This document shows positions 8,998 to 36,623 of a DNA stretch of 37,135 nt, one piece after another. Under the pieces are notes generated by a model, which had not been told where the DNA came from, did no database searches, and worked only from the letters and a program-made list of their open reading frames with translations. Position 1 is the stretch's first letter. Each line of letters begins with the position of its first letter. The stretch is taken from NCBI GenBank assembly GCA_016872975.1, contig VGYL01000003.1, positions 1-37,135 of the forward strand. Reading direction: 5' to 3'. Source of the DNA: Planctomycetota bacterium. Lineage in GTDB: Bacteria; Planctomycetota; Phycisphaerae; Sedimentisphaerales; Anaerobacaceae. Position numbers and translations under genes: made by a program.

Positions 8998-9095
8998 GGG
9001 TGGCATCGTCAAGGCCGGTAGGCCTTGGCGATGGTCCGGCGCACGGGAAATCCACCATCGCCAAGCTCCGAAGACTCCGCTTGACGATGCCACCC
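8998..9095. repeat. Palindromic element family 1, copy 1
   Basis: 98 nt. The outer arms GGGTGGCATCGTCAAG and CTTGACGATGCCACCC pair perfectly over 16 bp. An inner 11-bp stem CTTGGCGATGG/CCATCGCCAAG and a small 6-bp hairpin AAGGCC/GGCCTT give a multi-branched cruciform. CTCCGAAGACTCCG is shared by all three copies. It lies between serA and the phosphoglucosamine-mutase-like gene, ending 47 nt before that start codon. No target duplication is seen for this copy. Confidence 0.85.
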
Positions 9096-9142: not shown

Positions 9143-10570
9143 ATGGCGGAAAGTCTCATCATCAGCGTCAGCGGGATGAGAGGGGTGGTCGGTGAGAACC
9201 TTACCCCCATCGTCGCGGCGGAGTATGGCTGCGCGTTCGGAACCTTCCTGCGGAGCAGTATCGACACCGGCGGCCGGCCGTTCACCGTCTGCATCGGGCG
9301 GGATTCGCGCGTCAGCGGCTCCATGCTGCTGTCGGCCGTGGCGGCGGGCCTGTGCGCCATCGGCGTCAGCGCAGTCGATCTGGGAGTGGTCCCAACGCCG
9401 AGTGTCGGCATCATGTTGCGCCGGTTCCGTTGCCAAGGGGGTGTCATAATTACGGCGTCGCACAACCCGCTCCCCTACAATGGAATCAAGCTACTGCTCG
9501 GCAATGGGATGGCCCCGCCCATCGCGATGGCGAACGAGATCCGCCGAATCTTCTGGGACCGGCATTTCCATTTCGTCGATTCCTCCCACTGCGGCAAGGT
9601 GACCGGGAACAGCGACGCCTACCGCGTTCACATCGAGCAGGTGCTGCGCCTCGTCAACGTGGAGCAGATCGCCGCCCGGCGGTACAAGGTCGTTCTCGAC
9701 AGCGTGAACGGGGCGGGCGGGGATGTCACGAAAGCCCTCTTGGCGGAGTTGGGCTGTGAAGTAGTGGCCATCAACGACGAGCCGACCGGGCTGTTCGCGC
9801 ATGAACCCGAACCCACTGCGGAGAACCTGACGGGGCTCTGCTGGCGCGTGAAGCAGGAGCACGCGGATCTGGGGTTGGCCCAGGATCCCGACGCCGACCG
9901 GCTGGCTATCGTCGATGAACAAGGCGCGTACATCGGGGAGGAATACACCCTGGCCCTGGCGGCACTGCAGGCGTTCTCGAAAGGGACCGGCACGGCCGTC
10001 GCCAATCTGTCCACGTCGCGCATGCTCGACGACGTGGCCCGGCGCGCCGGCGGCAGCGTCATCCGCACGCCGGTGGGAGAAGCCCACGTGGCCAACGCCA
10101 TGATCGAGCACGGCGCCCTCATCGGCGGCGAAGGCAACGGCGGCGTGATCGACCTGCGCGTCGGACCCATCCGCGACAGTCTGGTGGGCATCGTCCTGAT
10201 CCTGCAACTGATGGCCGAGACGGGCAAGACCATCAGCCAATTGGTGCAGGAGATCGGCGGCTACTCCATGCACAAGGACAAGTTCCGCGCCGACGCCCAG
10301 CAGGCCCGGCAGATCCAGGAGATGGCGGTCGCACGGTTCGACAACGCCGCGATGAACGTCTCGGACGGTCTGCGGCTCGATTTCCCCGACGGCTGGATGC
10401 ACCTGCGCACGAGCAATACCGAGCCGGTGATGCGGGTGATCGTGGAGGCCCGGGACGAGCCCACCGCGCGACGCTACCTCCAAGCCGTCGCGGACATCCG
10501 CCGGGCGGTCCTGCAACCGGCCGCGACACCGGACGAACGCGCCAGGGCGAACGCAAAGCCCGGAGAGTGA
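9143..10570 (+). CDS. glmM: Phosphoglucosamine mutase / phosphohexomutase
   Basis: 475 aa. Alpha-D-phosphohexomutase superfamily: the phosphoserine loop ITASHNP has Ser 106, the Mg-binding loop DPDADR is at 248-253, the sugar-recognition GEGNGG is near 330, and the phosphate-binding RTSNTEP near 425. The short N-terminal FGT/GMRG start and small size favour GlmM, which converts glucosamine 6-phosphate to glucosamine 1-phosphate for UDP-GlcNAc synthesis. A phosphomannomutase or phosphoglucomutase role is not excluded. ATG follows GGAGTGA. The last eight codons and the stop come from an inserted palindromic element; without it the gene would end a few codons later in sequence lying beyond the element. 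Confidence 0.85.
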   Translation: MAESLIISVSGMRGVVGENLTPIVAAEYGCAFGTFLRSSIDTGGRPFTVCIGRDSRVSGSMLLSAVAAGLCAIGVSAVDLGVVPTPSVGIMLRRFRCQGGVIITASHNPLPYNGIKLLLGNGMAPPIAMANEIRRIFWDRHFHFVDSSHCGKVTGNSDAYRVHIEQVLRLVNVEQIAARRYKVVLDSVNGAGGDVTKALLAELGCEVVAINDEPTGLFAHEPEPTAENLTGLCWRVKQEHADLGLAQDPDADRLAIVDEQGAYIGEEYTLALAALQAFSKGTGTAVANLSTSRMLDDVARRAGGSVIRTPVGEAHVANAMIEHGALIGGEGNGGVIDLRVGPIRDSLVGIVLILQLMAETGKTISQLVQEIGGYSMHKDKFRADAQQARQIQEMAVARFDNAAMNVSDGLRLDFPDGWMHLRTSNTEPVMRVIVEARDEPTARRYLQAVADIRRAVLQPAATPDERARANAKPGE

Positions 10571-10729
10571 GTACCTGGACGTCGTCAACGGGTGGCAGCG
10601 GCAAGGCCGTAGGCTCTGCGCAGGCCTTGCCGATGGCGGACGGGCGAAACCATCGGCAAGCTCCGAAGACTCCGCTTGCCGCTGCCACCCATACAACAAA
10701 CGACTTTGCGTTTGCCCTGACGAACGCGC
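10533..10729. repeat. 10-bp target duplication flanking the inserted element
   Basis: ACGAACGCGC occurs at 10533-10542 and again at 10720-10729, exactly abutting the two ends of the 177-bp palindromic element. This is the arrangement a transposition event leaves behind. Confidence 0.75.
10543..10719. mobile_element. MITE-like non-autonomous element (family 1, copy 2, complete)
   Basis: 177 bp. Terminal inverted repeats CAGGGCGAACGCAAAG and CTTTGCGTTTGCCCTG pair over 16 bp with one G-T. Inside, at 10590-10690, is the family palindrome with arms GGGTGGCAGCGGCAAG and CTTGCCGCTGCCACCC. Directly outside the termini is the 10-bp duplication ACGAACGCGC. No coding capacity for a transposase is present, so it would have been mobilised in trans. 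The insertion lies in the 3' end of the phosphoglucosamine-mutase-like gene and immediately upstream of the regulator promoter. Confidence 0.75.
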
Positions 10730-10738
10730 GGCCACCTC

Positions 10739-10767
10739 TTGATGCGCACGCCTCTCTGGCGTAAAAT
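10739..10767 (+). promoter_or_regulatory. Promoter of the NtrC-family regulator
   Basis: TTGATG and TAAAAT are separated by 17 nt. The predicted start lies about 100 nt before the regulator start codon. The -35 box begins 10 nt outside the target duplication of the inserted element. Confidence 0.5.
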
Positions 10768-12320: not shown

Positions 12321-12470
12321 CTCAGTACCGCATTTCGTAAGTCCGGAGACTATGAGTAGAGATTGCTTCGTCGCTGAAGCTCCTCGGAATGACATACTTG
12401 GGCGCCCTATGTCATTGCGAGCGCGGCTCGCCGAGCGCGGCAATCTACCACCCATAGTCGCACTACTCAG
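12321..12470. repeat. Family 2 palindromic element (ATTGCGAG type), copy A
   Basis: 150 nt between two convergent genes. The outer ends are related inverted repeats, GCTCAGTACCGC on the left and, read on the other strand, GCTGAGTAGTGCG on the right, followed inward on both sides by GACTATG. Inside, arms AGATTGCTTCGTCGC and its partner around ATGTCATTGCGAGC face each other across a short centre TTGGGCGCCC. The right end reaches into the last codon of the nuclease gene and contributes its stop. Confidence 0.75.
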
Positions 12471-17190: not shown

Positions 17191-17437
17191 TCGCAAGAGC
17201 ATAGAGAGCCGGGGGGTGGCAGCGTCAAGGCCGGTAGGCCTTGGCGATGGTCCTGCGCCCGGGCAATCCGCCATCGCCAAGCTCCGAAGACTCCGCTTGA
17301 CGATGCCACCCATACAGCAAACGACTTTGCGTTTGCCCTGCCCTTCGTTCATAGCGGGCTCGTAAGAGCATAGAAAGTCAGGGGACGTTGCTTGCGGCTT
17401 CCCTCCATTCCTGGGCCTCTTGCATGCTCTTACGAGC
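17191..17437. repeat. TCGYAAGAGCAT repeats around family 1 copy 3
   Basis: A 24-25-nt imperfect direct repeat flanks the palindrome: 17191-17214 begins TCGCAAGAGCATAGAGAG and 17360-17384 begins TCGTAAGAGCATAGAAAG. The right copy is also one arm of a 14-bp inverted repeat, GCTCGTAAGAGCAT at 17358-17371 against ATGCTCTTACGAGC at 17424-17437. Confidence 0.65.
17214..17340. repeat. Palindromic element family 1, copy 3
   Basis: The palindrome spans 17214-17311 with arms GGGTGGCAGCGTCAAG and CTTGACGATGCCACCC (one mismatch). The shared segment CTCCGAAGACTCCG lies inside. The right flank to 17340 carries CTTTGCGTTTGCCCTG, identical to the right terminus of copy 2, but a clear left terminus is missing, so this copy is truncated or diverged on that side. 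Confidence 0.85.
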
Positions 17438-17467
17438 ACACTACAAACGGAGACCAAACGAGCCGCG

Positions 17468-17790
17468 CTAGTACCGCATTTTGCAGGTCCTGAGACTATA
17501 GGGTAGAGATTGCCTCGTCGCTGAAGCTCCTCGCAATGACATACTTGGGCGCCCTATGTCATTGCGAGTCGCGAAGCCGCTTCGCGGCGGGTAGGAGAAA
17601 GCAACCCGCCGTGTCCAGGGTGCCATGCCTACGCCTCGTAGGCATGTCTACGCAAAGCCGTAGACATGGCACCCAAACCGCCAGTTTCTTAGGAGCGAGG
17701 CTTGCCGAGCGCGGCAATCCTGTCATTGCGAGGAGCGCAGCGACGAAGCAACCTCACCATAGTCGCGGTACTTGTGAAATGCGGTACTAG
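17468..17790. repeat. Family 2 palindromic element, copy B, with long terminal inverted repeats
   Basis: 323 nt in the intergenic space between hom and gspK. The ends are exact inverted repeats, CTAGTACCGCATTT at 17468-17481 and AAATGCGGTACTAG at 17777-17790. The similarity continues inward for about 30 more bases through GACTAT and GAGATTGC. Inner arms are of the ATTGCGAG/GAAGCAA type, and more than one arm pair is present. Another repeat (17618-17674) is nested inside, so this is a compound insertion. It ends 21 nt beyond the gspK stop. Confidence 0.8.
17618..17674. repeat. Nested cruciform repeat GGGTGCCATG
   Basis: A 57-nt element with outer arms GGGTGCCATG/CATGGCACCC enclosing two hairpins, CCTACG-CCT-CGTAGG and TCTACG with CGTAGA. 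It interrupts the family 2 element B, which suggests the insertion is younger than B. Confidence 0.8.
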
Positions 17791-17811
17791 CGCCGGAGGC
17801 GCGCCGGCCCT

Positions 17812-20486: not shown

Positions 20487-20570
20487 ATCTCCTTGCGGGC
20501 GCAGCGAAGCATTCTCCCCTACTACGGCTTGAGATTGCTTCGTCACTGCGCTCCTCGCAATGACATACGC
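20487..20570. repeat. Family 2 palindromic repeat, copy C
   Basis: Contains GAGATTGCTTCGTC and CTCCTCGCAATGACAT on one side and a diverged partner arm around GCGCAGCGAAGCATTCTCC on the other. It lies in the gspJ-gspK gap. Confidence 0.7.
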
Positions 20571-23415: not shown

Positions 23416-23495
23416 ATGTCATTGCGAGGAGCGCAGCGACGAAGCAACCTCAATCCCACGGAGGGGAGATTGCTTCGCTTCGCTCGCAATGACAT
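23416..23495. repeat. Family 2 palindromic repeat, copy D, reversed arm order
   Basis: Begins ATGTCATTGCGAGGAGCGC and ends CGCTCGCAATGACAT, with GAAGCAACC and GGAGATTGCTTC facing inward. Compared with copies A, B and E the arms are inside out. It sits in the gap between the short GspG-like gene and gspH. Confidence 0.8.
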
Positions 23496-36461: not shown

Positions 36462-36623
36462 CTAGTATCGCATTTCGCAGGCCCCAAGACTATAGGGTAG
36501 AGATTGCTTCGTCGCTGAAGCTCCTCGCAATGACATATTTGGGCACCCTATGTCATTGCGAGGAGCGCAGCGACGAAGCAATCTCCTTCCGTTGGCCGCA
36601 GGACTTCTGAAACACGGGACCAG
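36462..36623. repeat. Family 2 palindromic element, copy E
   Basis: 162 nt. Left end CTAGTATCGCATTTCGCAGG, with GACTATAGGG and AGATTGCTTCGTCGC inward. Facing arms around AATGACATA and TATGTCATTGCGAG are separated by about ten bases. The right end, read on the other strand, is CTGGTCCCGTGTTTCAGAAG, a diverged partner of the left end. It stands 40 nt upstream of the fumarase beta subunit start. Confidence 0.75.

What the first reader, a model, noticed from the sequence alone, without database searches (positions are those of the whole stretch)
10533..10729. Complete 177-bp MITE-like insertion with a 10-bp target duplication, which supplies the stop codon of glmM
Terminal inverted repeats CAGGGC(G/A)AACGCAAAG lie exactly inside a perfect ACGAACGCGC duplication. 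Removing one duplication plus the element joins glmM to sequence that continues in frame as Ala-Thr-Ser-stop (TGA at 10740). So the pre-insertion gene can be reconstructed. The present C-terminus (last eight residues) is encoded by the element, and the insertion also placed the element just before the regulator promoter. This captures an element family in a state where its boundaries can be defined.
Basis: seen in the sequence. Interest (0 to 1): 0.75.

Follow-up and report, generated by a model that had tools for sequence, protein, structure and literature searches.

The report
ISAs1-type MITE inserted in glmM end
A 177-base non-coding mobile element jumped into the last codons of the glmM gene of a planctomycete, duplicated 10 bases of target and now supplies the gene's stop codon; about a hundred relatives in the same genome, empty sites in sister species and a matching parent transposon show what it is.

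Summary
Confirmed, and extended. 10543-10719 is a complete 177-bp element with 16-bp inverted ends, inside a perfect 10-bp duplication ACGAACGCGC. The own genome holds 134 matches to the end sequence (10 in the control). Of 40 complete elements, 26 have flanking repeats with 8-10 matches in 10, only at length 10. Congeners have glmM without the element; in one (G002) the protein has the same length as the reconstructed 470-aa ancestor and the TGA is in the same place. The parent is an ISAs1-family insertion sequence: a congener has a 1,237-bp ISAs1 copy (transposase frame broken) with 18/18 and 17/18 identical ends and a perfect 10-bp duplication; Caldilineaceae have one with an open transposase frame. 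So it is an ISAs1-type MITE, a new family of a known kind. Two things are less ordinary. The interior is an exchangeable palindrome: the same ends enclose a ~98-bp hairpin 'A' or a REP-like pair 'B', and A also fills MITEs with unrelated ends and 3-bp TNA duplications. At least five one-ended copies lack the left end and carry 27-56-bp direct repeats. The ancestral glmM stop codon lay inside the -35 box of the conserved downstream promoter; the insertion separated the two.

The parts
10533..10542 (.). left copy of the 10-bp target duplication ACGAACGCGC, within glmM codons
   Evidence: sequence; length-10 peak over 40 elements
10543..10719 (+). complete 177-bp MITE (frame T1, payload A1)
   Evidence: 99% identical full-length copy at G000:C66 with its own perfect 10-bp duplication
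10543..10558 (+). left terminal inverted repeat CAGGGCGAACGCAAAG (family consensus of 80 ends CAGGGCRAACGCAAAGTC; this end reads CC after the 16 bases)
10559..10589 (+). left arm; holds the present glmM stop codon TGA at 10568-10570
   Evidence: sequence
10590..10690 (+). palindromic payload 'A1' GGGTGGCAGCGGCAAGG...CCGCTGCCACCC
   Evidence: repeat and fold; A family abundant in a 788-kb sample of the genome
10691..10703 (+). right arm
   Evidence: alignment of copies
10704..10719 (-). right terminal inverted repeat (CAGGGCAAACGCAAAG on the - strand)
10720..10729 (.). right copy of the target duplication
9143..10570 (+). glmM (phosphoglucosamine mutase, TIGR03990 equivalog, 477 bits against cut-off 439); last 8 residues encoded by the MITE
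10740..10742 (+). ancestral glmM stop codon TGA, now outside the gene
   Evidence: empty-site comparison with G002 and G007
10739..10767 (+). conserved promoter TTGATG-N17-TAAAAT of the downstream regulator; its -35 box contains the ancestral stop
   Evidence: 1 found, 0.0 expected; TTGATR-N17-TARAAT in L159, L160 and L161
10876..12255 (+). NtrC-type sigma-54-dependent response regulator downstream
17214..17340 (+). one-ended relative: hairpin A2 + right arm + right T1 end, no left end
8998..9095 (+). hairpin A2 without T1 ends, just upstream of glmM, preceded by a T2-like end (TGAGAGCGTGTGTCAAAAG)

Best explanation
The feature is a non-autonomous miniature transposon (MITE) of the ISAs1 family. 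SHOWN: exact inverted ends, a 10-bp target duplication in most complete copies, about a hundred copies in the genome, empty orthologous sites, and full-length ISAs1 elements elsewhere with the same 18-bp ends and the same 10-bp duplication. INFERRED: an ISAs1 DDE transposase acting in trans bound the ends, cut the element out (or copied it) and joined it to a target with a 10-base stagger; host repair of the two 10-base gaps made the ACGAACGCGC duplication. Entry into the last codons of glmM replaced the C-terminal AATS* by ARANAKPGE* (470 to 475 aa), which lies outside the catalytic domains. It also moved the gene's end 187 bp away from the regulator promoter, whose -35 box had contained the old stop codon. 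The promoter itself is intact, so the insertion was probably near-neutral. The interior is a strong hairpin that is not specific to these ends: the family consists of a frame (ends plus arms) around an exchangeable palindrome.
For: 134 end matches against 10 control; length-10 duplication peak in 40 elements (first 31); empty sites. ISAs1 element G006:C37 8917-10153 (1,237 bp, ends 18/18 and 17/18 identical to the MITE consensus, duplication TGCTAATATC) and G008:C212 (1,327 bp, duplication GGTTGCAGGG, intact 389-aa frame). Caldilineaceae elements of 1,420-1,434 bp with exact ends, perfect 10-bp duplications and, in L261, an open ISAs1 transposase frame. Transposases named by NCBIfam NF033564 transpos_ISAs1 at 396 and 288 bits and by PF13808 + PF01609. 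PGM_PMM domain IV ends at residue 451 of 475. The own genome holds ISAs1 fragments at contig ends C504, C24 and C717, and a weak one at C235.
Against: No ISAs1 copy with exactly these ends was found in the own assembly: its fragments end CAGGGCGATTGCGCGA or CAGGGCGATTGCACCA. They break at contig ends, as collapsed multicopy elements do, so this absence is weak. The one congener ISAs1 with the same ends (G006) has an in-frame stop in its transposase. Present-day mobility was not seen: no within-species presence/absence data. 14 of 40 complete elements have 7 or fewer matches in their 10-bp flanks, expected for old or rearranged copies but not proven.
Confidence: 0.94

Rival explanations
1. The mobile unit is the ~98-bp hairpin A (a REP-like palindrome moved by an IS200/IS605-type Y1 'RAYT' enzyme); the ISAs1-type ends are a passive landing place.
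For: Hairpin A is far commoner than the frame (141 arm matches, 16 in the control, against 20 frame ends in 788 kb). It sits in frames with unrelated ends and alone (8998-9095). One-ended copies share nearly the same junction, (C)GACG|GGTGGC. 12 Y1 transposase genes are in the genome, one (C220, L298) close to an A hairpin with a T2 end.
Against: For the element at 10543-10719 the duplication lies exactly at the frame ends, not at the hairpin, as in 26 of 40 complete elements, including ones that carry B instead of A. The empty site lacks frame and hairpin together. This rival could explain how A enters frames, not how this element entered glmM.
Confidence: 0.04
2. A domesticated intergenic RNA hairpin (terminator, attenuator or mRNA stabiliser between glmM and the regulator) under selection, only mobile in the distant past.
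For: Very stable fold (-91.4 kcal/mol as RNA, z -5.6); position at a gene end; bacterial MITEs and REPs are often in 3' regions (PMC3733652, PMC10969869).
Against: No terminator-like U run. Absent from every congener examined. Perfect duplication and a 99% identical copy elsewhere speak for a recent insertion. No conservation at this site to argue for selection.
Confidence: 0.02
3. The ends and duplications are a chance or assembly effect of a GC-rich, repeat-rich metagenome assembly.
For: The assembly has 1,451 contigs and 5.65% contamination.
Against: Reversed-pattern control 10 against 134; duplication peak at length 10 only; the same family with 9/10 duplications in independent congener assemblies (L236, L247).
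Confidence: 0.005

Closest known systems
ISAs1 family insertion sequences (NCBIfam NF033564; Pfam PF13808 + PF01609)
   Same: ends CAGGGC.A.CGC...; 10-bp target duplications in the congener and Caldilineaceae elements measured here; 18/18 identical ends in G006 and L261
   Different: the window element has no transposase, is 177 bp instead of 1,237-1,434 bp, and its interior is not ISAs1 DNA but a repeated palindrome
Bacterial MITEs in general (for example MITEAba12, Nezha, Chunjie, Correia/NEMIS, RUP)
   Same: short, non-coding, inverted ends shared with an IS, target duplication, many copies, gene-end insertion with in-frame fusion
   Different: interior is one of several exchangeable hairpins that also occur in frames with unrelated ends; the papers found do not report an ISAs1 parent
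CGTC-tagged REP dimers (Di Nocera et al. 2013, PMC3733652)
   Same: payload B carries outward TGTC tags on both sides followed by an AT-first stem, the head-to-head dimer arrangement; that paper reports REP dimers embedded in longer palindromes in Anabaena variabilis and Halothiobacillus neapolitanus
   Different: here the enclosing palindrome is a transposon frame with measurable 10-bp duplications; payload A is a ~98-bp palindrome outside the 20-40-bp REP size range

Membership tests
MITE (IS-derived) | terminal inverted repeats | tested here: met
   15/16 identical ends; consensus over 80 ends CAGGGCRAACGCAAAGTC
MITE (IS-derived) | target-site duplication of constant length | tested here: met
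   10 bp; sharp peak at 10 in 40 elements
MITE (IS-derived) | no transposase of its own, small size | tested here: met
   complete elements 141-269 bp; the window copy is non-coding apart from the glmM tail
MITE (IS-derived) | multiple copies in the genome | tested here: met
   134 end matches; about 205 ends per genome estimated from a 788-kb sample
MITE (IS-derived) | empty orthologous site | tested here: met
   glmM of G002, G007 and other congeners
MITE of the ISAs1 family | ends identical to a full-length ISAs1 element | tested here: met
   18/18 and 17/18 with G006:C37 IS; 18/18 with both ends of L261
MITE of the ISAs1 family | same duplication length as ISAs1 elements | tested here: met
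   perfect 10 bp in L182, L183, L261, L220, L212
MITE of the ISAs1 family | exactly matching ISAs1 in the same genome | tested here: inconclusive
   own ISAs1 fragments have 11/18-like ends and are cut at contig ends
MITE of the ISAs1 family | transposition in trans by ISAs1 transposase | not testable with these tools
   needs a mobility assay
REP / RAYT elements (for payload A) | 20-40-bp palindrome with a GTAG or CGTC tag | tested here: not met
   A is 96-99 bp; the recurrent (C)GACG beside one stem end has the opposite polarity to the CGTC tag
CGTC-tagged REP (for payload B) | CGTC/TGTC tag, AT-first stem, head-to-head dimers | tested here: inconclusive
   tag, AT start and orientation agree with the text; the published consensus is in a figure that is not held

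The most novel reading that the evidence does not exclude
The genome runs a two-layer system: several unrelated transposon frames (T1: ISAs1 ends, 10-bp duplication; T2: GAGGGTGTGTGAGAA ends, 3-bp TNA duplication; T3 and T5: other ends) are filled from a common pool of palindromes (A, B, C, D, E). Breakage and faulty gap repair at the base of these hairpins swaps payloads and arms between frames, and leaves half-elements in which the left end is replaced by 17-46 bp copied from the right flank (L048, L053, L054, L092, L095). Palindromes, including REP-type pairs without a transposase of their own, would thus spread as passengers of DDE transposons.
Probability: 0.4. Interest if true: 0.65.

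Novelty: new member of a known kind. Interest (0 to 1): 0.42.

Why it matters
It is a fully documented insertion: exact ends, exact duplication, reconstructed ancestor, empty orthologues and an identified parent transposon. It adds an ISAs1-derived MITE family (with relatives in Caldilineaceae) to a small literature, and gives one clear case of a gene whose stop codon and C-terminus were supplied by a transposon while an overlapping promoter was left intact. The wider value is the sharing of palindromes between unrelated frames. It offers a testable answer to how palindromic repeats without their own transposase spread, a question that Di Nocera et al. (PMC3733652) left open for CGTC repeats.

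Tried and rejected
(b) PF01609 hits in the own genome (12) were checked for the T1 ends nearby: none convincing. (c) A stop-to-stop frame test over the 26 rejoined empty sites, to ask whether insertions favour coding DNA, was uninformative because GC-rich DNA is open in several frames. (d) Rfam gathering-threshold search: only a tRNA in the window, no RNA family at the element. (e) Terminator role: no U run. (f) Filing hairpin A as a REP was rejected on size and tag polarity. (g) A literal search of papers for the B repeat found nothing relevant. (i) The first glmM query had a wrong frame and was repeated.

Full report
THE OBSERVATION. The window holds exactly what was described: CAGGGCGAACGCAAAG at 10543-10558, its inverted partner at 10704-10719, and a perfect ACGAACGCGC on both sides (10533-10542, 10720-10729). 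glmM runs 9143-10570 and ends ...PDERA-RANAKPGE-stop; the last eight residues and the stop are element DNA. Without the element and one repeat it reads ...PDERA-ATS-stop, 470 aa, with TGA at 10740. The gene is named by TIGR03990 (phosphoglucosamine mutase) above its cut-off, and its last recognised domain ends at residue 451, so the changed tail lies outside the catalytic domains.

A REAL FAMILY WITH A 10-BP DUPLICATION. In the own genome (G000, 8.09 Mb, 1,451 contigs) the 16-bp end occurs 134 times with up to two mismatches; the reversed pattern occurs 10 times. Complete end-to-end elements are 141-269 bp. Over 40 distinct complete elements the match between the flanks is 0.695 for length 10 and 0.27-0.38 for lengths 8, 9, 11 and 12. 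Position by position, identity is 0.65-0.80 at the ten bases and 0.17-0.38 outside them. Thirteen are perfect, eight have one mismatch, five have two. No target consensus is obvious. The end consensus over 80 ends is CAGGGCRAACGCAAAGTC.

EMPTY SITES. Eight congeners have glmM orthologues (70-81% identity) without the element. The closest, G002, ends VLPPNTADGEPVKNS*, the same length as the reconstructed VLQPAATPDERAATS*, with the stop in CTCTTGATG. G007 ends VLEPGTAS* with the stop in CCTCTTGATACGCACG. The alignment also shows a conserved TTGATR-N17-TARAAT in G002, G007 and G008 and in the window (10739-10767; one promoter-like site found, 0.0 expected). The ancestral stop TGA thus lay inside the -35 hexamer of the promoter of the downstream NtrC-type regulator in the window lineage, G002 and G007. 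The insertion went in just upstream and left the promoter whole.

THE PARENT. The ends suggested ISAs1 (from memory: ISAs1 ends begin CAGGG, with 8-10-bp repeats). Test: PF13808, the domain typical of ISAs1 transposases, was sought in the genus beside the end pattern. G006:C37 8917-10153 is a 1,237-bp element with ends CAGGGCAAACGCAAAGTC and CAGGGCAATCGCAAAGTC, a perfect duplication TGCTAATATC, and an ISAs1 reading frame broken by one stop. G008:C212 is 1,327 bp with a related end, a perfect 10-bp duplication and an intact 389-aa frame. A scan of public genomes found Caldilineaceae elements of 1,420-1,434 bp with exact ends and perfect 10-bp duplications, one (L261) with an open 454-aa frame, and a 312-bp MITE (L213). 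NCBIfam names the L183 and L261 proteins ISAs1 family transposases (396 and 288 bits, cut-off 70). The own genome has only ISAs1 fragments at contig ends, with ends CAGGGCGATTGCGCGA or CAGGGCGATTGCACCA. Contig lengths tie the congeners to public MAGs of Phycisphaerae/Planctomycetota: G006 is Gw_SlDig_bin_305, G007 LacPavin_0920_SED4_MAG_61_20, G002 FK_Sedi_B_Bin.55, G005 UBA2218.

EXCHANGEABLE INTERIOR. The same ends (frame T1) enclose hairpin A (GGTGGCAKCGKCAAGG..., 96-99 bp, two variants), a REP-like pair B (TGTCATTGCGAG...CTCGCAATGACA), A with a 39-bp hairpin C nested in it, A with D, a B/A chimera (210 bp) or two A in a row (269 bp). B-filled elements have perfect duplications of their own (L081, L083). 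A different frame, T2 (ends GAGGGTGTGTGAGAA), always carries A and makes 3-bp duplications, mostly TNA, in 12 of 16 elements; T2 resembles IS5-type ends from memory only. T3 (TAGTACCGCATTT) carries B and sometimes E; T5 carries A, C, D or E. In an unbiased 788-kb sample, A arms number 141 (control 16) against 20 T1 ends (control 2), so A is an independent, abundant repeat. It matches only within the genus among 41 genomes searched. T1 frames filled with A and with B also occur in congener G007 (L236, L247), so the combinations are older than this species or were transferred.

HALF-ELEMENTS. Of 37 one-ended T1 copies, five have a long direct repeat that starts exactly at the remaining end and runs past the expected 10 bp (27-56 bp): L048, L053, L054, L092, L095. 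In the three simple ones the left arm is missing and the left duplication is followed by about 17-26 bp copied from the right flank, then GACG and hairpin A. A possible reading is faulty gap repair: the left broken end misaligned on the right duplication, copied the right flank, and was joined to a strand that had stalled at the hairpin base. A transposase with a longer, variable stagger is a less economical alternative. Neither was tested.

MECHANISM. Shown: ends, duplication, copies, empty site, parent. Inferred: trans-mobilisation by an ISAs1 DDE transposase with a 10-base stagger; near-neutral effect on glmM; role of hairpin breakage in payload exchange. Not shown: present activity, effect on expression.

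NOVELTY. A MITE is a known kind; this is a new family of it. The papers found that hold both ISAs1 and miniature inverted-repeat are few and none describes such a family; the one recent review consulted does not mention ISAs1. The library is open access only, so absence there is weak. REP dimers inside longer palindromes have been noted before (PMC3733652), which lowers the novelty of payload B but fits the frame/payload reading.

Noticed in passing
L048, L053, L054, L092, L095 (G000 contigs C273, C871, C35, C134, C300): One-ended T1 elements flanked by direct repeats of 27-56 bp that begin at the expected 10-bp duplication; the left end is replaced by a copy of the right flank, joined to hairpin A at GACG.
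   Followed up: partly
L060, L063, L066, L068, L070, L074, L304, L316, L326, L330 and others: A second MITE frame (ends GAGGGTGTGTGAGAA, 141-240 bp) with 3-bp, mostly TNA, duplications always contains the same hairpin A as the ISAs1-type frame.
   Followed up: partly
window 17465-17793: A third frame (CTAGTACCGCATTT inverted ends, 35-bp arms) holding REP-like B units and hairpin E.
   Followed up: partly
window 8998-9095: Hairpin A2 without ISAs1-type ends directly upstream of glmM, beside a T2-like end, so glmM lies between two A hairpins.
   Followed up: no
window 10739-10767: Conserved promoter TTGATR-N17-TARAAT in four species; in the window lineage, G002 and G007 the (ancestral) glmM stop codon lies inside its -35 box.
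   Followed up: yes
G000:C220 1225-1515 (L298): A Y1 (IS200/RAYT-like) transposase gene with an A2 hairpin and a T2 end within about 200 bp; a candidate lead for independent movement of hairpin A.
   Followed up: partly
L208-L284 (Caldilineaceae and Caldilineales MAGs): Many copies of the same 18-bp end, with full ISAs1 elements and a 312-bp MITE, in Chloroflexota: shared end specificity across phyla, possibly by horizontal transfer.
   Followed up: partly
window 23416-23495, 36500-36585, 20493-20566, 17506-17542, 17721-17756, 12359-12423: REP-like B units scattered through the window; about 800 arm matches per genome by extrapolation from the 788-kb sample.
   Followed up: no
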